From positions 1,488,001 to 1,552,000 of the forward strand of contig NZ_CP043427.1 of assembly GCF_008245005.1 (NCBI RefSeq): a stretch of 64,000 bases of DNA, written 5' to 3'. The translations under genes and the position numbers were made by a program. Source of the DNA: Campylobacter sputorum subsp. sputorum. GTDB taxonomy: Bacteria; Campylobacterota; Campylobacteria; Campylobacterales; Campylobacteraceae. Shown piece after piece: positions 51,677-63,596 of this stretch (its first letter is position 1; each line of letters begins with the position of its first letter). The notes beneath the pieces were generated by a model. It did not search any database and was not told the origin of the DNA. It was given only the letters and a program-made list of their open reading frames with translations.

Positions 51677-52369
51677 ATGAATGTATGTATAATCCCTGCT
51701 AGGGGCGGAAGCAAGCGGATACCAAAGAAAAATATTAAAAATTTTCACGGACAGCCTATCATTGCTTATAGTATAAAAAACGCCATAAACTCAAAACTTT
51801 TTGATGAGGTAATAGTCTCTACAGACGATAAAGAAATTTCACAAGTTGCCATAAATTTCGGTGCAAGTGTGCCTTTTATGCGTCCAAAAGAATTAAGCGA
51901 TGATTTTACACCATCAGGATATGCTACAACACACGCCTTAAATTTCTTAAAACAACAGGGGAAAAATGTGGATTTTGTCTGCACAATGTATGCAACAACG
52001 CCATTTTTACAACTAAAATATCTTAAAATTGCTTATGAAAAACTCAAAAATTCCGACGCTTGTAGTGCGTTTTCATGCACTTCTATGCCTTTTCCAATTC
52101 AGCGAACATTTAAAATAACACAAGATGAGAGATGTGAAATGTTTTTTAAAGAGTATTTTAGCTCACGAAGTCAGGATTTAGAACCAGCTTATCAAGATGC
52201 TGGACAATTTTACTGGACTAACCTTAAGAAAACCTCATCAGATATTTTCTTTGGAAAAGATAGCATTCCTATCATCTTACCACGCTATCTCGTGCAAGAT
52301 ATCGATACTATGGAAGATTGGGTTAGAGCTGAGATAATGTATGAAGTTATACAAAGAGCAGGAATATGA
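51677..52369 (+). CDS. pseF: CMP-pseudaminic acid synthetase-like cytidylyltransferase (PseF/NeuA family)
   Basis: A 230-residue enzyme activating a nonulosonic acid with CTP. It begins NVCIIPARGGSKRIPKKNIK, the CTP-binding motif, and has SRSQDLEPAYQDAGQFYW and DIDTMEDW, which follow the order of the PseF/NeuA family; SRSQDL..AYxDAGxFY is closest to PseF. In Campylobacter this activates pseudaminic acid for O-glycosylation of flagellin. It opens the glycan region. The promoter of the next operon lies between it and the following gene, so it is probably a separate transcript. Confidence 0.85.
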   Translation: MNVCIIPARGGSKRIPKKNIKNFHGQPIIAYSIKNAINSKLFDEVIVSTDDKEISQVAINFGASVPFMRPKELSDDFTPSGYATTHALNFLKQQGKNVDFVCTMYATTPFLQLKYLKIAYEKLKNSDACSAFSCTSMPFPIQRTFKITQDERCEMFFKEYFSSRSQDLEPAYQDAGQFYWTNLKKTSSDIFFGKDSIPIILPRYLVQDIDTMEDWVRAEIMYEVIQRAGI

Positions 52370-52469: not shown

Positions 52470-53915
52470 TTGTTTCAAAATAAAAAAATTTATATATCTC
52501 CGTATTCAAAAACAAGTGATGTTTTACGAAAAAAACTATTAGACAAATATAAAAATGCAGAATTTTTAGGCTTTATAGATAAAAATCAAATAGGTAAAGA
52601 TATATTTAAATTTGATGATATTAAAAATAGTAAATTTGATTATATTTTGATACATTCTCCAAATCATTTTGAAGATATATACAAAGACTATAAAAGCGTA
52701 AAAAAAAGAATTCTAAAAGTTAAAAATATAGATAATGAGTATGTTTTCTTAAATTACTTTAAAATTAAATTTGAAAAAATATCCCATTTAAGTCAATTTT
52801 TTAGAGAATTTATTTTCAAAAACTTAGCTAAATTTTATGATAATTTTTCAAGACGTAGTTATGTATTTATATCTAAAAATTTTATTAATGGAAATAATAA
52901 ATTTCTTTATCTTACAATGTGTGATAAAAACATTGATTGCTTTATGCTCTCAAATAACAAAAGCCAGATATATGAGTTAAAACAAAAAGGATTTAAAGCA
53001 TTAAAACTAGATAGTATGCAAGCATATATAAAACTTGCAAAAGCAAAATTTATCATAGTTGATCAAGGCAATAACTCGCATATATTAAATTTAAAATCAA
53101 AAAACCAAAAAACACTGCAAATGTGGCATGGAATCCCATTAGAACATATGAATTTACTAACAGATATCACATACGATTATTTTTTATCGACAAGCGAATT
53201 TGTAAGCAAAACCGGTTTTAGTAAAGTTTTTTTAGCAAAAAATTTTTTAGATTTAGGATATCCTAGAAATGACATTTTATTAAAAGAAAAATATGATGAA
53301 AAAGATCTTATATTTACAGACAAAAAACTATTTAATTTTATAAAAGAAACAAAACAAAATAATAAAAAAATCATCATATATATGCCAACTTGGAGAGAAA
53401 GCGATTTTAACTCACAAAAAACACAGATTGAAAATTTAAATCTTGACTTTGATTTATTAGATAGTTTTTTAATAAAAAATGATATATTTTTCATCATTAA
53501 ATTTCATCCGTTTGTATATTCGCATTGTGATGAGTTTTTAAAAAGTGCTAAATTTCATCATATTTTATTTCATGACGCACAAGGAGATATATATCCATTA
53601 CTTAAATTTGCAGATATTTTGGCAGGGGATTACTCTTCTGTTTATTATGATTTTTTACTTTTAAACAAACCGCTTTTATTTTATCTTTATGACCATGGAA
53701 AATGCTCAAAAATGGCTCACGGATATATTTATGAGTTTGATGATTACAGCCCTGGAGAAAAAGCTTTTAATCAAATAGAGCTACACGAAAAAATAATTAA
53801 AACATTAAACGGCAATGATGATTTTAAAGATAAGAGAAAAATTTTGGCAGATAAATTGTTTAAATTTAAAGATGACAAATCTAGTCAAAGGATTATAGAG
53901 GTATTAAAACAATGA
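52470..53915 (+). CDS. CDP-glycerol glycerophosphotransferase (TagF/TagB)-like transferase with extra N-terminal domain, copy 1
   Basis: A 481-residue cytoplasmic/peripheral protein. The first ~90 residues (NKKIYISPYSKTSDVLRKK, EFLGFIDKNQIGKDI, FDYILIHSPNH) form a small Rossmann-like domain. The rest is a Glyphos_transf (PF04464-type) GT-B domain: LQMWHGIPLEHMNLL, GYPRNDILLK, KFHPF, ADILAGDYSSVYYDFLLLNKPLLFY. These enzymes move a phospho-alcohol from a CDP carrier onto a glycan or polyol. There is no teichoic acid in this Gram-negative, so a glycan decoration is likely. Start is TTG after AAAGG. It overlaps the next gene by 4 bases and has a full-length relative at 57499. Confidence 0.82.
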   Translation: MFQNKKIYISPYSKTSDVLRKKLLDKYKNAEFLGFIDKNQIGKDIFKFDDIKNSKFDYILIHSPNHFEDIYKDYKSVKKRILKVKNIDNEYVFLNYFKIKFEKISHLSQFFREFIFKNLAKFYDNFSRRSYVFISKNFINGNNKFLYLTMCDKNIDCFMLSNNKSQIYELKQKGFKALKLDSMQAYIKLAKAKFIIVDQGNNSHILNLKSKNQKTLQMWHGIPLEHMNLLTDITYDYFLSTSEFVSKTGFSKVFLAKNFLDLGYPRNDILLKEKYDEKDLIFTDKKLFNFIKETKQNNKKIIIYMPTWRESDFNSQKTQIENLNLDFDLLDSFLIKNDIFFIIKFHPFVYSHCDEFLKSAKFHHILFHDAQGDIYPLLKFADILAGDYSSVYYDFLLLNKPLLFYLYDHGKCSKMAHGYIYEFDDYSPGEKAFNQIELHEKIIKTLNGNDDFKDKRKILADKLFKFKDDKSSQRIIEVLKQ

Positions 53916-54970
53916 AAAAACTACTTTTTACACCAGGTCCCGTAATGATGAGCAAAAAAGTGTTAAAAATAGGTTCGACTCAACCAATGTATTTTAGAAA
54001 TGGCGAATTTTCAAAAATTATGTTTGAATGCAAAAAACTGATTTTAAAATTACTAAATGCTCCAAATGGCAGTGATGTTGTGTTTATAGGTGGTAGCGGT
54101 ACTTTGGGCATGGAAGCAACACTCATAAATATAATAGAGAAAAACCAAAAAGCCTCTATAATAAACGGTGGTGGATTTGGCGAACGATTTGCCAAAATTT
54201 GCAAACAAAAAAGTATAAATTTCAGTGAGATTAAATTAAGATTAGATGAAAATATAAATTTTGATACAATAGATAAAAATTGTAAAGCATTATTTACAAA
54301 TGCTCACGAAACTACTATAGGTAGAGCATATGATCTAAAAAGCATTGGTGAGTTTTGCAAAAAAAATAAAATGCTTTTTTGCGTAGATGCAATATCTGCA
54401 TTTATGGCAGATGAAATAGATATGACAAAACAGCAAATAGATGCCATTATCATAAGCTCTAACAAAGGTTTAGCACTACCTCCTGGGCTTTGTATAATCA
54501 TACTTAGCAAAAATTATATAGAAAATTTAATACCTTGCGATAGCTTTTATATGGATTTTAAAAATTATCTAAACGATATAAAACGAGGTCAAACTCCATT
54601 TACTCCGCCTATTTGTATTATTTATCAGCTACTTGAAAGATTAAGAGAGATAGATAAAAAAGGTATATTGTATTTTAATAAAAAAGCTAGTAATTTAGCT
54701 AAGTATTTTAGAAATCATATAAAAGATTTACCACTAAAACTTTACTCTAAATTTCCATCAAATGCAATGAGTGCAGTAGAAATAACTAATCAAGAAAGTG
54801 CTTTTGAATTTGTTAAAAAATTTGAAAAACTATATAATGTAACTCTTACACCAAGTGGAGGAAATTTAAAAGAAAAATTAATAAGAGTTGGACATTTAGG
54901 AAATTTAAGTAAAAAAGATATGAAATTTTTAATCGAATGCTTAAATGAATATTTTAAAGGAAAAAAATGA
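53912..54970 (+). CDS. 2-aminoethylphosphonate:pyruvate transaminase-like class V aminotransferase
   Basis: A 352-residue PLP enzyme of the PhnW/alanine-glyoxylate group. Motifs follow PhnW in order: LFTPGPVMMS (5-14), GGSGTLGMEA (60-69) for cofactor phosphate binding, TNAHETTIGRAYDL, CVDAISAF with D159, and SSNKGLALPPG with the Schiff-base K185. PhnW interconverts phosphonoacetaldehyde plus alanine with 2-aminoethylphosphonate (AEP) plus pyruvate. It is followed immediately by a LicC/PntC-like cytidylyltransferase; this AEPT+PntC pairing is the known way to make CMP-AEP. PEP mutase and phosphonopyruvate decarboxylase, needed to supply the aldehyde, are not in the window, so another amino-phospho compound is possible. 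Confidence 0.82.
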   Translation: MKKLLFTPGPVMMSKKVLKIGSTQPMYFRNGEFSKIMFECKKLILKLLNAPNGSDVVFIGGSGTLGMEATLINIIEKNQKASIINGGGFGERFAKICKQKSINFSEIKLRLDENINFDTIDKNCKALFTNAHETTIGRAYDLKSIGEFCKKNKMLFCVDAISAFMADEIDMTKQQIDAIIISSNKGLALPPGLCIIILSKNYIENLIPCDSFYMDFKNYLNDIKRGQTPFTPPICIIYQLLERLREIDKKGILYFNKKASNLAKYFRNHIKDLPLKLYSKFPSNAMSAVEITNQESAFEFVKKFEKLYNVTLTPSGGNLKEKLIRVGHLGNLSKKDMKFLIECLNEYFKGKK

Positions 54971-55680
54971 GAGTTTTACTTATGGCAGCAGGCATTGGAA
55001 GTAGAATTTCAAGGCATTTAAGCGGACAGCCAAAATGTTGTGTTTATATCAAAAACAAACCACTAATACGCTACACTTTTGAATTGTTAAATAAACTTGA
55101 TATAAAAGATATTGGCATTGTTACAGGATACGCACAAAATTATATTTTAAAAGCACTTGATGGATTTAAATTTACTCATTTTAAAAATAATTTTTATGAT
55201 ATCACAAATTCAATAGCTTCTGCATATTTTGCAAAGGATTTTTTAGATGAAAACGATGATTTGATTTTGATGAATGCTGATGTTTTTATAGAGAAAAAAG
55301 GACTAGAAATTTTACTTAACAGCGATGAAAGTCCGCTTTTCTTAGCTGATTCTACGCGTATTAAAGAAGCTGATTATAAATTTGCTTGGCAAGATGGTAA
55401 GCTAACAAAATATGGCAAAGAATTAAATGAAGATGAAACTAGTGGCGAATATGTAGGTATTGCAAAAATTTCAAAAAAAGATATATGTTTTTTCAAGCAA
55501 AATTTAGATAAACTCATAAGCGAACAAAAACACGGTTATTGGTGGGAAGATGTGTTTTATAGAAATATAAATAAAAAACCGGTTTTTATCAAGGATATTA
55601 AGGGTGTATTTTGGGCAGAAGTTGATTATATAGAAGATTATGAAAGAATTCAAAACTATTTAAAGGACAAAAATGGATAA
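54967..55680 (+). CDS. LicC/PntC-like nucleotidyltransferase
   Basis: A 237-residue NTP transferase. The start RVLLMAAGIGSRISRHL followed by QPKCCVYI is the nucleotide-binding and catalytic PKC loop. LMNADVFI holds the metal-binding Asp, and ADYKFAWQDGKLTKYGKELN, GEYVGIAKIS and the C-terminal WAEVDYIEDYERI follow phosphocholine/AEP cytidylyltransferases. It should join a phosphonate or phospho-alcohol to CMP. It overlaps the transaminase gene by 4 bases (ATGA) and the methyltransferase gene by 8. Substrate choice (AEP, phosphocholine, phosphoethanolamine or a relative) cannot be told from sequence alone. Confidence 0.82.
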   Translation: MRVLLMAAGIGSRISRHLSGQPKCCVYIKNKPLIRYTFELLNKLDIKDIGIVTGYAQNYILKALDGFKFTHFKNNFYDITNSIASAYFAKDFLDENDDLILMNADVFIEKKGLEILLNSDESPLFLADSTRIKEADYKFAWQDGKLTKYGKELNEDETSGEYVGIAKISKKDICFFKQNLDKLISEQKHGYWWEDVFYRNINKKPVFIKDIKGVFWAEVDYIEDYERIQNYLKDKNG

Positions 55681-56631
55681 GCTAAATCAAGAACTAATAA
55701 ATAAAATCGAACTTAGTTTTAAAATAGATGAATTAATAGAAAATTTTACTAAAAACAGTGATATTTCAAACGAAGTTATAGAAATTTTAGATGAAAATTT
55801 AAAAGATAAAGAGAAAATTTTAGAAAGATTGAAAGATAAAAAAACTGCTTTAATTGATGAAATTCATCTTTATCTAGATAGTATTTATGATACAGATGAG
55901 TGTGAAAACTACATAATAAATAGATATTGGCAAAATTCTTATAAAAACAAAACTCCAACATATTTTCAAAAAGCTTATAAGCTTTATTACGAAATATTTT
56001 TTCCAAAAATTTTGCAAAAATATTGCAATAACTTTGATACTGCTCTTGAGATAGGTTGCGGAAATGGGATCATTACAGAAATTTTAGCTAAAAAATTTAA
56101 AAATGTAATTGGTATTGATTTATCAAAAAATGGCGTAAATGTTGCAAATAAAAATAACAAATTGAAAAATGTTAAATACTTTTGCGATGATGCAAAAAAT
56201 GCTAAAAAATATATAAGCGGCTCCGGATATAATCTAGTTTTTGCAAGTGACATTATGATGTATTCTCAAGATAAAAATTTAAAAGCTATTTTCGAAGGAT
56301 TTTTAAGTATTATAAATCCGGGGGGGGGGTATTGCTTATGAGAGAAAGCGTGAAAAATAGCGGTAAAGAGTATCACAAATCAAGACATTATGTAGCGTAT
56401 TATAGAAATAAAGATTTCTACACACGAGGAATTTTTAAAGACTTTTTTGTAGGAAAATTTCGTTCTCATAGCTATTTGCTTTACTATAGAAAAAAACTTT
56501 TCAATGCATTTCCACAACTCCAAGAAGAGTTTTTAAAAAATCCATTACTAATAGAAAAATATAGCAAAAATTTTCCACTTCACGAGCAAAGATCTCAATA
56601 TATTTATATATACGGACAAAATAATGGATAA
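55673..56631 (+). CDS. Phase-variable SAM methyltransferase 1, OFF (G10)
   Basis: Coiled N-terminus (1-65), then a class I SAM methyltransferase: TALEIGCGNGIITEILA (motif I), NVIGIDLSKN, LVFASDIMMYS, then NPGGG. The reading frame passes a run of ten G (56320-56329) and ends at TGA 56341 (..GGGYCL). One more G (11) or two fewer (8) gives ..GGVLLMRESVKNSG and joins the second ORF at 56332-56631, a 319-residue protein. The paralogue at 56624 has the same LLMREST junction in frame, confirming the repair. So the gene is switched OFF in this sequence. It probably methylates a glycan or its precursor. Confidence 0.88.
56320..56329 (+). repeat. Phase-variation tract G10 in methyltransferase 1
   Basis: Ten G after AATCC. 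G10 leads to a stop after four further codons (OFF); G11 or G8 joins the frames (ON). Confidence 0.93.
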
Positions 56632-57502
56632 TATAAATAAAGAACTAATAGAAGCAAAAAAGCGAATAGATGAGATAGATGAGTTAAAAAAATCTCTAGA
56701 TAGCGAATACAAGACATTACAAGATAAAATTCATCTATATTTTGATAGCCAAACAATAGATACAACAGAAACGGAGAAATTTATAATAAATAGTTTTTGG
56801 CAAAAAGCTTATGAAAACTACGCCGATGGTGGATATATTACAGATGATGTAAAAATACGCGAACTTAGATTTCCATATGAATGCAAACTTATTAAAAATA
56901 TAATAAATAAACATTGCAAAAACAAAAATACAGCCTTAGAACTTGGTTGTGGAAATGGCGATACTAGTAGATTTTTAGCAAGTATTTTTAAAAGCGTAAA
57001 GGGTGTAGATATGTCTAAAAAGTGCATAGAAAAAAATATCGCCGAAAATAAGACAAAAAACTTAAAATTTGAGCGCAAAAACGCTTTTGAAGAAAACCAA
57101 AAATATGACTTTGTTTTTGCAAGTGATATGTTTATGTATTCACCAGAATGCGATGTTGAGCTAATGTTTGAAAAGCTCTTAAATTTGCTAAATGGGGGGG
57201 GGTATTTGTTAATGCGTGAAAGCACTAAAATTATTGGCGAAGAGGATTATAAATCCAAAAACTATGTGGCATATTATAGAAATTTTAAGTTTTACGAAAC
57301 TGGAATTTTTAAACCTTATTTTATAAAATCATACAGAAATTACGGCTATAATATGTATCATTTAAATAAGTTTTTTAACGTATTTGGAGATAAAAAAAGA
57401 GATGAAATCAAGGCAAATCCTATGCTTTTAGATGAAATTGTAAAAAAATTTGTCGATGTGAGTTTAAAAACTTGCCATTTCTTTGTTTATAAAAAACAAT
57501 GA
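56624..57502 (+). CDS. Phase-variable SAM methyltransferase 2, ON (G9)
   Basis: A 292-residue paralogue of the preceding gene with the same coiled N-terminus, TALELGCGNGDTSRFLA (motif I), KGVDMSKKCIE, FDFVFASDMFMYS and NGGGYLLMREST. Its nine-G run (57194-57202) codes for the three glycines of the motif and keeps the frame, so it is ON; other lengths would not, except multiples of three. The end FFVYKKQ resembles copy 1. It overlaps both neighbours (8 and 4 bases). Substrate unknown; the product is likely a methylated unit of the nearby transferases. Confidence 0.88.
   Translation: MDNINKELIEAKKRIDEIDELKKSLDSEYKTLQDKIHLYFDSQTIDTTETEKFIINSFWQKAYENYADGGYITDDVKIRELRFPYECKLIKNIINKHCKNKNTALELGCGNGDTSRFLASIFKSVKGVDMSKKCIEKNIAENKTKNLKFERKNAFEENQKYDFVFASDMFMYSPECDVELMFEKLLNLLNGGGYLLMRESTKIIGEEDYKSKNYVAYYRNFKFYETGIFKPYFIKSYRNYGYNMYHLNKFFNVFGDKKRDEIKANPMLLDEIVKKFVDVSLKTCHFFVYKKQ
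57194..57202 (+). repeat. Phase-variation tract G9 in methyltransferase 2
   Basis: Nine G coding for GGG in NGGGYLLM, in frame (ON) as sequenced. Confidence 0.92.
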
Positions 57503-58923
57503 TAAATTTAAACAGTCTAAAAAATAAAAAAATATACATTTATCCACTTTCTGATTCTAGTATAGCATTTAAAAGTTATTTAAAAATAGAAAACGTTGAG
57601 ATTTTGGGATTCATAGATACAAGTAAAAAGTGCTTACATGGGATTTCTAGCATAAATTTAGATGATGTAAAAGAATTTGATTATATTGTGATTTATTCAT
57701 CTAATCACGAAAAAGAAATATATGACTATTGTATACATAAAATTTCAAAAGATAAAATTTTATGTGCATATTTAAACAAGTATAAAGAATACAAGCTTAA
57801 TAGCACGCCACAAGAGCTACCATTTGTGCGTGTATCAAAAATTTTAGATGAAAAAATACCAAAATTAAAAGATGAAATTTTATTTATAGGTTTTCAATTC
57901 ATTGATTTAAATATCAAATATTTATATTTATATTTTCTACAAAACTCACACTTAAAAATCCATTTAGCCACCTATAACAAAAGAGATTATGAGTTGTATA
58001 AAAAAGCAGGATTTGATGTAATATGGTGCGATAGTGAAGAATTTGTAGAACAAGCTCTTAGTTGTAAAGTCAAAGTGATAGATCAAACACCTACAGCTCC
58101 GTTTCTTATAAAAGCACTGAAAATAGGAAAATGTGTTCAGTTATGGCATGGTATTACTATAGAAACATTAGGAATTTTAGCGGATTATAAAGTTATAAAA
58201 TACTCTTTAATGCTTTCTACTTCACATTTTGTAAGTAAATATAGCTTTTCAAAATTTTATAATTATGAAAAAATAATAACTTCTGGATACCCTAGAAATG
58301 ATATTTTAAGAAAGTTTAAATGTGAAATTTTCAATGTAGATTTAAATTTACTAAATGACATTAAAACTCATAAGTTTAGATATATCATATACACCCCAAC
58401 GCACAGAGCAAATACTTTTAATAAAAACCCGCTTGATTATGAAATTCTTGATAAATTTTGCAAATTAGAAAATATAAAATTTATCATAAAAATGCACCCG
58501 TTTATAGCAGAAAAATTACGAGATGATTTAAATACATACAAAGCAAAAGATAGGAATTTTGAAAATATTATTATTTATCCAGCAAATATGGATATTTATC
58601 CAATAATGCCATATTGTGATATGATGATTGCTGATTATAGTTCTATGTATTTTGACTTTTTGTTTGTAGATAAACCAATTGTATTTTTTCCATATGATTA
58701 CGATGAATGGGTTTTAAGCGAAGGTGGAACTTGCTTGGACTACTTTTCTTATTCTCCGGGTGATAAAGCATATAATCAAGTTGAATTAGAAGAACTAATA
58801 CTTAAAAATTTACAAAATGACGGGTATAAAAAAGAAAGAGAGAAAATTAAAAAAATAATGTTTGAAAATTTAAAATATAATTCGTGTAAATTAATAGAAA
58901 AAGAGATAGAAAAATTATTATGA
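57499..58923 (+). CDS. CDP-glycerol glycerophosphotransferase (TagF/TagB)-like transferase, copy 2
   Basis: A 474-residue paralogue of the gene at 52470 with the same design: N-terminal domain (KNKKIYIYPLSDSSIAFKSY, EILGFIDTSKK, FDYIVIYSSNH) and Glyphos_transf domain (VQLWHGITIETLGI, SGYPRNDILRK, IIKMHPF, MMIADYSSMYFDFLFVDKPI). The shared extra domain in two copies suggests both work on, or bind to, the same carrier or partner. Overlaps neighbours by 4 bases each. Likely transfers the CMP-activated group made by the upstream genes, possibly to a different position than copy 1. Confidence 0.82.
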   Translation: MINLNSLKNKKIYIYPLSDSSIAFKSYLKIENVEILGFIDTSKKCLHGISSINLDDVKEFDYIVIYSSNHEKEIYDYCIHKISKDKILCAYLNKYKEYKLNSTPQELPFVRVSKILDEKIPKLKDEILFIGFQFIDLNIKYLYLYFLQNSHLKIHLATYNKRDYELYKKAGFDVIWCDSEEFVEQALSCKVKVIDQTPTAPFLIKALKIGKCVQLWHGITIETLGILADYKVIKYSLMLSTSHFVSKYSFSKFYNYEKIITSGYPRNDILRKFKCEIFNVDLNLLNDIKTHKFRYIIYTPTHRANTFNKNPLDYEILDKFCKLENIKFIIKMHPFIAEKLRDDLNTYKAKDRNFENIIIYPANMDIYPIMPYCDMMIADYSSMYFDFLFVDKPIVFFPYDYDEWVLSEGGTCLDYFSYSPGDKAYNQVELEELILKNLQNDGYKKEREKIKKIMFENLKYNSCKLIEKEIEKLL

Positions 58924-60251
58924 AGCAAACAATACTTTTTTGTTTCCATCCCGATAGAATAAAAAATTTCTATCCGCTCATAAAATTTCTATCAAAAGAG
59001 TTTGAAATTTTAATCCTTACAACATCCAAAAATTTCAAAAAAATAGAGCAAACCGATACGCAAAGCTTTGCTAAAATATATTTTGCCGATAAAGCAAATT
59101 TGAGCTTTAAAATACTATCAAAAATGCAAACCTTTTTATCAAAATATGTAAAATTTAGCTTAGCTCAAATAGCATTAAAATATGTTCATATCGGCTATTT
59201 TATAAATGAGCATAAAATCACCTCTAAAATCTATAAAAAGCATCATTTCAAAGCGTTAATACCGCATGATGATAGAACCTTTCGCTACTTTATAGGTAGC
59301 ATAATTTTTGCTAAAAAGCATAATATTCCTATAATTTTACCATATCTATATCTTTCAGGATATTACACTTTGCCAATGTTTCATAATTCAAAATATTGGG
59401 AAAAATCGAATCTTTGTAAATATCAAAACTATACTTTCAAAAAATTTTCAAACTACGGTACACAAAAATATGAAGAGCATTTTTATTTTCCAGCTTTTAT
59501 CATTCAAGCTCAATACTCATATCATAAATTTCTTAGTAAAAATCCATTTTTTACAGGATGTGGCACGAATGATATTGTAATCTTGGATAATGAAATTACC
59601 AAATTTCACTACTCAAAAGTAAAAGAAATTGATATGAAAAAAGTTGAAATTTTAGGCGATATCAATTTGGATAATCTCCATAAATCTTACCAAAACAGAT
59701 TTACCATCAAAGAGAAATTTAAGCAAAAATATCATCTTGATGATAGAAAAATTGCCATTTTCGCAGCTCAACAACTTTATGAGCATGGTTGCTCTAGTTT
59801 TGATGAATGTTTGGCTGATAATGAGTTTATTATCAACTCAATTATTCAAAACAATATCCAACTCATCATCTCTCTACATCCTGTGATGAATATTGCAAAT
59901 TACGCACATTGGCAGCAGAAATTTCCTTGTGTAATTGCTGATGAAAATTTGATGGACTTTTTACCAATTGGCGATATTTTTATACATGGCAATTCAAGCA
60001 CGGCTATTTGGGCGATTTTTTGTGGAGTAAAAACCTTGAATTTATGGTTTTGGGGCGATGACAGTATTGAGTTTTTTAAGCTGTATAAATCAATGTGGAA
60101 TTTATATGATAGAAATTTAACCAAAGAAACCATTAAAAAATTAATCGACACAAATATCGATTTTAGCGATGATTGGAACAAAATGGCAAGAGATAAAGTT
60201 TTTGATGGTAAAACAAAACAGCGATATTTAAAACTTTTAAAATCGCTATGA
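58920..60251 (+). CDS. Third GT-B fold transferase (glycosyl/glycerophosphotransferase-like)
   Basis: A 443-residue soluble protein, last of the plus-strand operon. It starts KQTILFCFHPDRIKNFYPLI and has GT-B features in its C-terminal half: IQLIISLHPVMNIANYAHW, DFLPIGDIFIHGNSSTAIWA, and FCGVKTLNLWFWG, which resemble the nucleotide-binding half of glycerophosphotransferases and UDP-sugar 2-epimerase-like folds. It lacks the N-terminal domain of copies 1 and 2. Probably a glycosyl- or phospho-alcohol transferase finishing the structure. I cannot name the donor. Confidence 0.6.
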   Translation: MKQTILFCFHPDRIKNFYPLIKFLSKEFEILILTTSKNFKKIEQTDTQSFAKIYFADKANLSFKILSKMQTFLSKYVKFSLAQIALKYVHIGYFINEHKITSKIYKKHHFKALIPHDDRTFRYFIGSIIFAKKHNIPIILPYLYLSGYYTLPMFHNSKYWEKSNLCKYQNYTFKKFSNYGTQKYEEHFYFPAFIIQAQYSYHKFLSKNPFFTGCGTNDIVILDNEITKFHYSKVKEIDMKKVEILGDINLDNLHKSYQNRFTIKEKFKQKYHLDDRKIAIFAAQQLYEHGCSSFDECLADNEFIINSIIQNNIQLIISLHPVMNIANYAHWQQKFPCVIADENLMDFLPIGDIFIHGNSSTAIWAIFCGVKTLNLWFWGDDSIEFFKLYKSMWNLYDRNLTKETIKKLIDTNIDFSDDWNKMARDKVFDGKTKQRYLKLLKSL

Positions 60252-60383: not shown

Positions 60384-61190
60384 TTACAATCCCCAGCCAT
60401 CATCAACTATGATTGTTTGACCGCTCACAAACTCACTTAAATCACTTAAAAGATATATTAGCGTTCCGCATAAATCCTTTGCATCAAGCATACCTTTGCT
60501 AACACAACATTTCCTATACGCCTTTAAAAAGCTCTCAGGCTGATTTTCTAAAATTCCCCCGGGAGCTATCACATTTGAGCGAATTCCTGTATCTTTTAAA
60601 AACTTCCCCAAATATCTGCTCATATGAATAATTCCCGCTTTTATGACACTATATTCGATTGGACTTTGCATATTTGTGCCAATATAGTTTTCAAATTTCG
60701 GCGCATAAACACCCATAATCGACGAAATGGAAACAATATTGCCAAAGCCTTGATTCTTAAAATATCTTGCAAATTCTTGCGAAGTTAAAATATATCCACC
60801 CAAATGCATACTCAAATTTTTTGCAATATCATCATAATCTAGCTCAAAAAACGCTTTTTTGCCCCAATTTTTCGTTCTTGGATAAGCATTATTGACCAAT
60901 GCATCAATCTTCTTATATTTATTATGCAATGTTTCAATAGCTAGATTCAAACTATCTTTTGAAGTTATATCAAGCTTTATTGTGTCAATTTTAGCAGTTT
61001 TTGGCTCTGTTTTACTATCATTTTTCACATTTTCAATCTCTTTTAAAATGTTATTTTTTACATTGATTGCCAAATTTTCGTCAATATCAGCAATAATTGC
61101 CACTGCTTCATTCATCGCAACAGATTTTACAAATTCTTTTCCAAGCTTTCCTGCTCCGCCTGTTATTACTATAACTTTATCTTTTAACAT
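60384..61190 (-). CDS. ptmA: Flagellin-modification short-chain dehydrogenase PtmA
   Basis: A 268-residue SDR oxidoreductase: cofactor motif VITGGAGKLGKE (8-19), NNAYPRTKNWGKKAFFELD, ISSIMGVYAPKFENY, the YxxxK active site in EYSVIKAG, and SGQTIIVDDGWGL at the end. This string of features, above all NAYPRTKNWG and the VDDGW end, is the PtmA family found in Campylobacter flagellar glycan loci, where it works on legionaminic/nonulosonic acid precursors. It is the last gene of the minus-strand run (aminotransferase, methyltransferase, FemAB-like, GNAT, ptmA). Only 5 bases separate it from the GNAT gene. Confidence 0.85.
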   Translation of the reverse strand: MLKDKVIVITGGAGKLGKEFVKSVAMNEAVAIIADIDENLAINVKNNILKEIENVKNDSKTEPKTAKIDTIKLDITSKDSLNLAIETLHNKYKKIDALVNNAYPRTKNWGKKAFFELDYDDIAKNLSMHLGGYILTSQEFARYFKNQGFGNIVSISSIMGVYAPKFENYIGTNMQSPIEYSVIKAGIIHMSRYLGKFLKDTGIRSNVIAPGGILENQPESFLKAYRKCCVSKGMLDAKDLCGTLIYLLSDLSEFVSGQTIIVDDGWGL

Positions 61191-62833: not shown

Positions 62834-63596
62834 CTATTTTTGAATTTCTAAAATTCCCCAATTCATCAGCATTCCACCCGAAATTTGTATCCTTTGAACA
62901 CTTTTGTTTTTTAAAATTTTTTCACAAAAAGTCCCAAGACCTCTGCCTTTGTAGTCAAAATCTACATTTGTATCAAATTTATGCACCTTAAAATGGCTCA
63001 CTTTATTTTCAAGCCAATTAGAAATTGTTTTAAGAGAATATGTGTTGTAGTTACAATAAACATTTTCTCTACCTGCTGGTGTCGTGTGATCCAAACATCT
63101 TGAATATATATCAACATCAAAATCTACATTAAAAAGCGAACTAATATATATAAATCCACCATCTTTGGTTATATCGATAAGCTCATTTAAAGCTTTTTCG
63201 GCTCTATCCAAACACATTAAAGCTTGCCAACAAAATACAAAATCAAATTTTTTATCAATCTTTAAGTCATATATATTTCCAACATAAAAAGAAAATCTAT
63301 CCGAATTTTCACGGTTTATCTCTTTTGATATGGATATTGCATCCTCTAAATAATCGACCAATGTGAAATTTGATAATGCGTTTTTCTTGCTAAGCCAATA
63401 ACTCAAACTCCCCCCCCCCCCCCCCACAAGCAATATCCGCTATCTCTAACTTGCCTGAAAAATGCTTGTTATTTGATAGTAACTTTTCTAAAAATTTTTG
63501 TTGCTCCGTTTTTGTGATAGCTGATTTTCTATAATACAAATCATTCTGCTTTGCATTAGCTTTCAAAAATTTTTGATACTCGTCAAAATGTTGCAT
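62834..63596 (-). CDS. Phase-variable SAM methyltransferase 3, OFF (C16)
   Basis: Start at 63596 with AAAGGAGAAAAT gives MQHFDEYQKFLKANAKQND, then KLEIADIACGGG, where the motif I glycines are coded by sixteen G (sense). At 16 the frame ends soon after (EFELLA stop). At 15 (or 12, 18) it reads GGGSLSYWLSKK, TLVDYLEDAI, FDFVFCWQALMCL and GGFIYISSL to a 253-residue protein ending GILEIQK. So the tract sits inside the SAM-binding loop itself, and the gene is OFF here. It is unlike methyltransferases 1 and 2 and lies in the minus-strand operon. Confidence 0.86.
63410..63425 (-). repeat. Phase-variation tract C16 (G16 in sense) in methyltransferase 3
   Basis: Sixteen C, the longest homopolymer in the window; a multiple of three restores the frame. 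It codes for the glycine loop of the SAM site, so even ON variants would differ in glycine number. Confidence 0.92.

What the first reader, a model, noticed from the sequence alone, without database searches (positions are those of the whole stretch)
52470..60251. Candidate CMP-aminophosphonate (or phospho-aminoalcohol) glycan-decoration operon with TagF-like transferases
Seven overlapping genes join a PhnW-like transaminase (K185 intact), a LicC/PntC-like cytidylyltransferase, two TagF-like transferases, a third GT-B transferase and two methyltransferases. AEPT next to PntC is the known signature for CMP-2-aminoethylphosphonate. What looks new is the pairing with TagF-type (CDP-alcohol) transferases in a Campylobacter flagellar-type locus, plus two methyltransferases that could N- or O-methylate the group. 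PEP mutase and phosphonopyruvate decarboxylase are not in the window.
Basis: partly seen in the sequence, partly recalled or inferred. Interest (0 to 1): 0.85.

Follow-up and report, generated by a model that had tools for sequence, protein, structure and literature searches.

The report
Phase-variable amino-alcohol phosphate glycan operon
A Campylobacter-type bacterium carries a gene set that appears to build a small amino-alcohol phosphate, load it onto the nucleotide CDP and attach it to surface sugars; it does not look like the phosphonate pathway first proposed, and its two core enzymes occur as a neighbouring pair in many unrelated microbes.

Summary
One gene is out of frame at G10, the other open at G9, the usual sign of Campylobacter phase variation. 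The nucleotidyltransferase is of the LicC/PntC kind by sequence and fold. The phosphonate reading fails: the complete genome has no PEP mutase match and no phosphonopyruvate decarboxylase over cut-off, and the aminotransferase scores 159 bits against a cut-off of 360.8. Aminotransferase and nucleotidyltransferase are direct neighbours in 60 of 82 loci, from Campylobacterota to Clostridia, Treponema and one archaeal assembly. PEP mutase is near in 2 of 82, each time with its own cytidylyltransferase. The pair often sits beside LicD, TagF or CDP-alcohol transferases, which use CDP-linked donors. Best explanation: transamination of a common phosphorylated carbonyl, best guess dihydroxyacetone phosphate to serinol phosphate, then CDP-serinol, then TagF-type transfer to a pseudaminic/legionaminic glycan, with switchable methylation. 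It works like the C. difficile type A and P. aeruginosa b-type flagellin decorations but with a different amine source. The substrate is inferred, not shown.

The parts
51677..52369 (+). pseF, CMP-pseudaminic acid synthetase (context)
   Evidence: TIGR03584 318.8 bits, cut-off 205.7
52470..53915 (+). TagF-like CDP-linked phosphotransferase A (TTG start)
   Evidence: PF04464 2.1e-56; TagF 3l7i 1.2e-15; 72% identical in G001
53912..54970 (+). class V aminotransferase of the pair, PLP lysine K185
   Evidence: PF00266 6.6e-24; PDB 3f0h 7.7e-72; AF2 pLDDT 95.8
54967..55680 (+). LicC/PntC-type cytidylyltransferase of the pair
55673..56341 (+). SAM methyltransferase 1, first piece, interrupted
   Evidence: PF13649 8.6e-15; 37% identical to methyltransferase 2
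56320..56329 (+). poly-G tract of 10, place of the frame interruption
   Evidence: sequence
56332..56631 (+). methyltransferase 1, remaining piece in another frame
   Evidence: sequence; no Pfam match alone
56624..57502 (+). SAM methyltransferase 2, open
   Evidence: PF13847 6.6e-14
57194..57202 (+). poly-G tract of 9 inside methyltransferase 2
   Evidence: sequence
57499..58923 (+). TagF-like phosphotransferase B
   Evidence: PF04464 5.5e-41; 35% identical to A
58920..60251 (+). predicted surface-carbohydrate transferase, class unknown, matched only in this genome among 150 searched
   Evidence: TIGR04396 20.7 bits, below cut-off
60384..61190 (-). ptmA-like oxidoreductase of flagellin modification (context)
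   Evidence: NF050062 352.4 bits, cut-off 350

Best explanation
The operon makes and attaches a phosphorylated small amino-alcohol. Step 1 (inferred): the class V aminotransferase aminates a phosphorylated carbonyl of central metabolism, best guess dihydroxyacetone phosphate to serinol phosphate (2-amino-1,3-propanediol phosphate). Step 2 (reaction class supported by family and fold, substrate inferred): the LicC/PntC-type enzyme couples it to CMP, giving CDP-serinol. Step 3 (family shown, acceptor inferred): the two TagF-like enzymes transfer serinol phosphate from CDP to a surface glycan, most likely a pseudaminic or legionaminic acid glycan, since pseF, ptmA and leg genes flank the operon. 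Step 4 (inferred): the two methyltransferases methylate the amine or the sugar, and poly-G tracts switch each of them on or off. My confidence in the general scheme (CDP-amino-alcohol made by the pair and used by TagF-type enzymes) is about 0.75; in serinol in particular about 0.4.
For: LicC/PntC family and fold. Of the residues that mutagenesis of T. denticola PntC found important (R15, K25, K153; PMC6697681 Results read), R13 and K23 match; K151 is the likely match of K153, though two alignments differ by two columns. Aminotransferase directly upstream of the NTP transferase in 60 of 82 loci, 38 of these 60 with a 4-base overlap, and somewhere in the locus in 68 of 82; distances of the two proteins correlate, r 0.81 over 64 loci, largest of 500 shuffles 0.143 (shared species history contributes). 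Neighbours are CDP-donor enzymes: LicD or TagF-like in 46 of 82 by iterated HMM (44 without the doubtful L102 and L103), CDP-alcohol phosphotransferase-like in 5. No PepM in the genome and none over cut-off in 46 of 51 genomes with the pair (12 of these 46 have a match under the cut-off). By eye on one member of each of the 40 largest neighbour clusters, no other substrate-making gene recurs beside the pair, which points to a common metabolite. Serinol: C. jejuni Cj1437 forms serinol phosphate from dihydroxyacetone, as the paper words it (PMC12409886 passages), PSAT1 slowly makes it from DHAP (PMC9283133 passages), and in two selenomonad-type loci a HisC-like PLP enzyme stands near the NTP transferase where no class V enzyme was seen (L092, L098). 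Phase variation.
Confidence: 0.5

Rival explanations
1. CMP-2-aminoethylphosphonate operon: the aminotransferase makes AEP from phosphonoacetaldehyde and a PntC activates it.
For: Best fold match of the NTP transferase is T. denticola PntC; PntC-AEPT is also among the best folds for the aminotransferase; E194 matches PntC E196.
Against: No PepM and no Ppd over cut-off in a complete genome, so no source of phosphonoacetaldehyde. Aminotransferase far under the AEPT cut-offs. N103 instead of E104. In the two loci with PepM nearby, the phosphonate genes have their own cytidylyltransferase plus their own AEPT (L057) or an Fe-ADH (L082).
Confidence: 0.04
2. CDP-ethanolamine operon: the aminotransferase makes phosphoethanolamine from glycolaldehyde phosphate, and TagF-like enzymes add phosphoethanolamine.
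For: LicC-type enzyme and CDP-alcohol transferases beside the pair; phosphoethanolamine is a common surface decoration (recalled).
Against: Glycolaldehyde phosphate is not a main metabolite (recalled); no choline/ethanolamine kinase match in the genome; LicC prefers phosphocholine 2700-fold over phosphoethanolamine (PMC6697681), though this is another enzyme.
Confidence: 0.15
3. CDP-amino acid operon like the C. difficile type A cassette (CDP-threonine) or a CDP-serine analogue: the aminotransferase makes a phosphorylated amino acid such as phosphoserine.
For: Same enzyme kinds (LicC-like, TagF-like, methyltransferase) as cd0242-cd0244 (PMC10714395 passages); the aminotransferase matches phosphoserine aminotransferase models weakly (TIGR01364 59 bits); conserved R131 could hold a carboxylate (inference).
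Against: No ThrH/phosphoserine-phosphatase-like gene in the operon, which both known cassettes have; phosphoserine would not need a dedicated aminotransferase beside SerC (inference; SerC itself was not searched for).
Confidence: 0.13
4. CDP-activated other amino-polyol (for example 3-amino-1,2-propanediol phosphate from glyceraldehyde phosphate, or a C4/C5 amino sugar alcohol).
For: Same logic as the best explanation with another common phosphorylated carbonyl; a strongly conserved polar set (N103 79, D128 81, R131 81, D136 81 of 82 rows).
Against: I know of no glycan or enzyme precedent and made no search for one; serinol has one in C. jejuni.
Confidence: 0.18

Closest known systems
C. difficile type A flagellin glycan cassette (cd0241-cd0244) and P. 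aeruginosa b-type (pa1088-pa1091)
   Same: LicC-like nucleotidyltransferase, TagF-like transferase and SAM methyltransferase decorating a flagellin glycan with a methylated amino compound through a phosphodiester.
   Different: Those have a ThrH/PSP-like enzyme (CD0241, PA1089) and use phosphothreonine; here a class V aminotransferase takes that place, there are two TagF-like enzymes, and the methyltransferases carry poly-G tracts.
T. denticola PntC-AEPT (Tde1415) phosphonyl tailoring pathway
   Different: No PepM, no Ppd over cut-off; not fused; 22-24% identity; N103 in place of E104; aminotransferase outside the AEPT models. L057 holds both systems in one locus.
S. pneumoniae LicC / lic1 phosphocholine pathway
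   Same: Cytidylyltransferase family (best sequence match) and, in related loci, LicD transferases.
   Different: No choline kinase match in the genome; residues that touch the amine are N103/E194, not D105/D192; an aminotransferase stands where a kinase would.
C. jejuni Cj1436/Cj1437 (ethanolamine phosphate and serinol phosphate for capsule amides)
   Same: Enzymes that make a small amino-alcohol phosphate for a surface glycan in a relative.
   Different: There the phosphate is removed by Cj1435 after amide formation and no CDP donor is described in the passages read; the enzymes are of another PLP class (HisC-like, recalled).

Membership tests
PntC/AEPT phosphonate tailoring (CMP-AEP) | PEP mutase in the genome | tested here: not met
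   TIGR02320 and PF13714: 0 matches in the complete genome
PntC/AEPT phosphonate tailoring (CMP-AEP) | phosphonopyruvate decarboxylase in the genome | tested here: not met
   TIGR03297 best 30.9 bits, cut-off 312.5
PntC/AEPT phosphonate tailoring (CMP-AEP) | aminotransferase passes an AEPT model | tested here: not met
   159 of 360.8 bits (TIGR03301), 109.9 of 400.8 (TIGR02326), 118.8 of 296 (NF010006)
PntC/AEPT phosphonate tailoring (CMP-AEP) | LicC/PntC fold and nucleotidyltransferase motif GxG(S/T)R...PK | tested here: met
PntC/AEPT phosphonate tailoring (CMP-AEP) | amine contacts E104 and E196 | tested here: not met
   N103 and E194 by the alignment: one of two
LicC phosphocholine pathway | choline kinase to supply phosphocholine | tested here: not met
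   PF01633: 0 matches in the genome; other kinase families not tested
LicC phosphocholine pathway | D105/D192 in the choline pocket | tested here: not met
   N103/E194
C. difficile type A / P. aeruginosa b-type cassette | LicC-like enzyme, TagF-like enzyme and methyltransferase in one operon | tested here: met
C. difficile type A / P. aeruginosa b-type cassette | ThrH/PSP-like HAD enzyme in the operon | tested here: not met
   none among the operon's frames; a HAD-like frame lies about 13 kb downstream at L031 4453-5109, read by eye only
PF04464 TagF-like transferases | match over the curated cut-off | tested here: met
   191.9 and 141.2 bits, cut-off 22.1
CDP-serinol pathway (proposed) | aminotransferase uses DHAP and cytidylyltransferase uses serinol phosphate | not testable with these tools
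   needs enzyme assay
Poly-G phase-variable genes of Campylobacter | G tract of 7 or more in the frame, length differing between copies or isolates | tested here: inconclusive
   tracts of 10 and 9 present; 0.01 G9 matches expected by chance in the window; no second isolate of the species was compared

The most novel reading that the evidence does not exclude
The aminotransferase/cytidylyltransferase pair is an unrecognised, widespread pathway for a new activated building block (CDP-serinol or a close amino-polyol), feeding several transferase superfamilies (TagF, LicD, CDP-alcohol phosphotransferases and perhaps Fic enzymes) that put a positively charged phosphodiester on surface glycans, lipids or proteins; in this genome its methylation state is switched by poly-G tracts.
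Probability: 0.4. Interest if true: 0.78.

Novelty: new variant of a known kind. Interest (0 to 1): 0.6.

Why it matters
If right, a set of LicC/PntC-like enzymes that would be read as phosphocholine or phosphonate enzymes makes something else, and loci across Clostridia, Treponema, Campylobacterota, Gammaproteobacteria and at least one Fusobacterium get a testable product. Genome scans for phosphonates that count an AEPT-like gene beside a PntC-like gene would overcount. In flagellated Campylobacterota it would add a switchable, charged decoration to the known pseudaminic and legionaminic glycans, which bears on motility, phage binding and immune recognition.

Tried and rejected
CMP-AEP: rejected on PepM/Ppd absence and on the natural controls L057 and L082. 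Phosphocholine: no choline kinase match. Sugar-1-phosphate NTP transferase: sequence and fold rank below LicC/PntC. Looked for the pair in named records with a known glycan: E. coli genomes, no match (DNA search with one Shewanella pair only); plasmid collection, one close match (50% identity), Fusobacterium vincentii SB055 in an LPS-core-type locus with LicD, but the LPS paper read (PMC8048906, passages, another strain) left the core uninvestigated; phages, one 26.9% match named CTP:phosphoglutamine cytidylyltransferase; viral contigs, none. The third transferase could not be classed. Tree of the cytidylyltransferases puts 82 pair rows on one side (SH-aLRT 94) of 5 others, but two of the 5 have very long branches, so I lean on residues instead. 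Residue caution: the search that found the 80 loci used the peptides QKH[GN][YF]WW and FWAEVDY, so conservation at 187-193 and 215-221 is partly built in; R16, N103, D128, R131 and D136 were not in those patterns. Literature: in a search that included CDP-serinol, 12 papers held at least one of the four terms and none of the 11 listed held that one; searches for the gene combination gave, by title, only the PntC paper as relevant. That library is open-access PMC only.
Full report
WHAT IS THERE. The operon runs 52470-60251 on the + strand: TagF-like A, class V aminotransferase (AT), NTP transferase (NTPt), methyltransferase 1, methyltransferase 2, TagF-like B, and a transferase of unknown class; neighbours overlap by 4 or 8 bases. 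pseF lies 100 bases upstream and a ptmA-like gene follows on the other strand, both over their curated cut-offs. G+C is 25-27% across 52-60 kb against 29-34% in the neighbouring 2-kb windows. Of the 150 genomes searched (its own included) only one other of the same genus (G001, NTPt 77%) and one of another family (G098, 68%) have a close NTPt; the next best is E 1.8e-19. That patchiness and the composition suggest a horizontally acquired island (inference).

Methyltransferase 1 carries ten Gs at 56320-56329 and ends in a stop shortly after; its remaining part is in another frame. Methyltransferase 2 carries nine Gs at 57194-57202 at the matching place and is open. The first piece of 1 is 37% identical to 2. 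G9 matches are expected 0.01 times in the window; three tracts are there, the third at 63410-63425. The genome has 16 separate tracts of 8 or more Gs (counted by me from the list), 6 of them within 24 kb from 1544320 to 1567965. Poly-G tracts, flagellin-modification genes among them, are the main form of phase variation in Campylobacter (PMC6321876, passages read). Variation itself was not observed here, since one genome was read.

THE AMINOTRANSFERASE. Best structure match is 3f0h, an aminotransferase of Eubacterium rectale named only as such (7.7e-72; Foldseek 2.8e-44, TM 0.96). It scores far below the AEPT models. It has no second copy in the genome at E 0.001.

THE PAIR. A scan of one genome for each of 84,980 species with the NTPt alignment gave 80 loci (80 is also the cap per call). 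With the window, L032 and L034, and without L115 (no NTPt over 80 bits), there are 82. AT lies directly upstream in 60 of 82, elsewhere in the locus in 8, and is not seen in 14 (3 of which begin at a contig end). The AT is in loci of Campylobacterota, Gammaproteobacteria, Clostridia, Treponema, selenomonad-type bacteria, an Opitutae assembly and one methanogen-related assembly (L074); the four other archaeal loci (L100-L103) have the NTPt without it. Many are metagenome assemblies. Protein distances of AT and NTPt correlate at r 0.81 over 64 loci, shuffled maximum 0.143. NTPt signature R16, N103, D128, R131, W192, W193: all six in 73 of 77 rows that have letters at all six (82 rows in all); misses are L097, L099, L104 and L106. 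Of 5 outgroup cytidylyltransferases none has the set. W192 and W193 are partly built in by the search peptides.

WHY NOT A PHOSPHONATE. PepM: no match with TIGR02320 or PF13714 in the complete genome. The controls ring only under the cut-off; the positive control is, where 5 of 51 genomes with the pair pass it. Twelve more of the 51 have a match under the cut-off, G098 among them (121.6 bits); most of the 51 are drafts or metagenome assemblies, so absences there are soft; G001 (one contig) has no match. The 51 are G001, G098 and the genomes of 49 of the 80 loci. Ppd: 30.9 bits against 312.5 in the window's genome. PepM is near the pair in 2 of 82 loci. In L057, PepM and Ppd stand with a PntC-AEPT fusion (612 aa) that scores 75 (NTPt) and 166 (AT) bits with the pair's HMMs, while the separate pair in the same locus scores 372 and 516 (the HMMs were built with that pair included, so its own scores are raised). 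In L082, PepM is fused to its own NTPt and accompanied by Ppd and an iron alcohol dehydrogenase, which I read as a hydroxyethylphosphonate-type set, again with the pair as separate genes. In the genomes of L073 and L076 PepM is likewise fused to its own NTPt domain. These are natural controls that the pair does another job.

WHAT THE PAIR FEEDS. By iterated HMMs LicD-like genes occur in 38 loci, TagF-like in 10, CDP-alcohol-phosphotransferase-like in 5; LicD or TagF in 46 of 82. I regard the LicD hits in L102 and L103 as doubtful (44 without them), and L034's LicD hit had no Pfam match. Pfam confirms LicD in L085 and L037, PF04464 in L054 and L057, PF01066 in L082; the rest were not checked one by one. 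Nine loci have a protein strongly similar to the L038 protein, which joins a Fic-like part (22.2 bits, under its cut-off of 24; motif HPFPDGNSR) and a Mur-ligase domain; in L049, the other one scanned, only the Mur-ligase part was recognised. What these superfamilies share is use of CDP-linked donors (TagF: CDP-glycerol; LicD: CDP-choline; CDP-OH family by name; one Fic enzyme, AnkX, uses CDP-choline; recalled). So the pair's product is most likely a CDP-amino-alcohol.

WHICH AMINE. By eye on one member of each of the 40 largest neighbour clusters, no further substrate-making gene recurs, so the carbonyl should be a common metabolite. DHAP is the simplest: C. jejuni Cj1437 makes serinol phosphate and Cj1436 ethanolamine phosphate (PMC12409886 passages), and PSAT1 makes serinol phosphate slowly from DHAP (PMC9283133 passages). 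In L092 and L098 a HisC-like PLP enzyme stands near the NTPt, with LicD nearby, where no class V AT was seen. This fits replacement by an enzyme of the Cj1436/Cj1437 type, but I did not compare it with those two proteins. Serinol is therefore my best guess, not a result.

ACCEPTOR AND SETTING. The operon sits between pseF and ptmA, with LegC, NeuB and NeuC homologues (over cut-off) and an O-methyl-phosphoramidate-type gene set 1-20 kb past the window end. In G098 (L034) and in Catenovulum (L037) the cassette also lies beside genes that I read by eye as pse genes. Flagellin matches are at about 95, 187, 683 and 709 kb of the genome, against 1540-1548 kb for the operon. A nonulosonate glycan on flagellin is the likeliest acceptor; LOS or capsule are not excluded.

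WHAT IT IS LIKE. C. difficile cd0241-cd0244 and P. aeruginosa pa1088-pa1091 build a phosphodiester-linked methylated threonine on flagellin with a LicC-like enzyme, a TagF-like enzyme or domain and a methyltransferase (PMC10714395 and PMC11833859, passages read). This operon works like those but lacks their ThrH/PSP-like enzyme and has the AT instead, so it is not filed as a member. Verdict: a new variant of a known kind, with a wider conserved pair that I did not find described in the library searched.

Noticed in passing
L031 (genome 1552001-1572000), 11287-19715: Genes like the C. jejuni O-methyl phosphoramidate set (PRK05849 1004.6 bits and PRK05541 235.6 bits over cut-off; gamma-glutamyl-CDP-amidate hydrolase 177.7 under its cut-off of 250) stand next to legionaminic acid genes (the C. 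jejuni gene names are recalled).
   Followed up: partly
window 63410-63425 (- strand): A G16 tract, the longest in the genome list, where two short frames meet; one of them (62834-63433) is methyltransferase-like. A G8 tract lies at about 62570.
   Followed up: partly
L038 2921-5851, L049 3061-6174, L045, L047, L050, L051, L052, L109, L114: A Fic-like plus Mur-ligase type protein in the loci of the pair in 9 of 82 (Campylobacteraceae, Methylococcaceae and others); it might transfer the CDP-linked group to a protein or peptide.
   Followed up: partly
L040 6572-9004, L042 6575-9004, L053 6575-9004: The aminotransferase is fused behind about 450 residues that look like an alpha/beta hydrolase by eye; Pfam gave only UPF0227 under its cut-off in L040.
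   Followed up: no
L100-L103: Methanogen-related assemblies with the cytidylyltransferase but no class V aminotransferase; an ATP-grasp-like gene precedes it in L101, L102 and L103 (Pfam run on L101 only).
   Followed up: no
L125 12107-14738: Fusobacterium vincentii SB055: LicD, aminotransferase and cytidylyltransferase in what I read as an LPS-core locus; the 2.1 Mb record is labelled a plasmid.
   Followed up: partly
L032 13315-14634 versus window 58920-60251: The gene after TagF-like B differs between the two genomes of the genus: a PF05159 protein in G001, an unclassed one here.
   Followed up: partly
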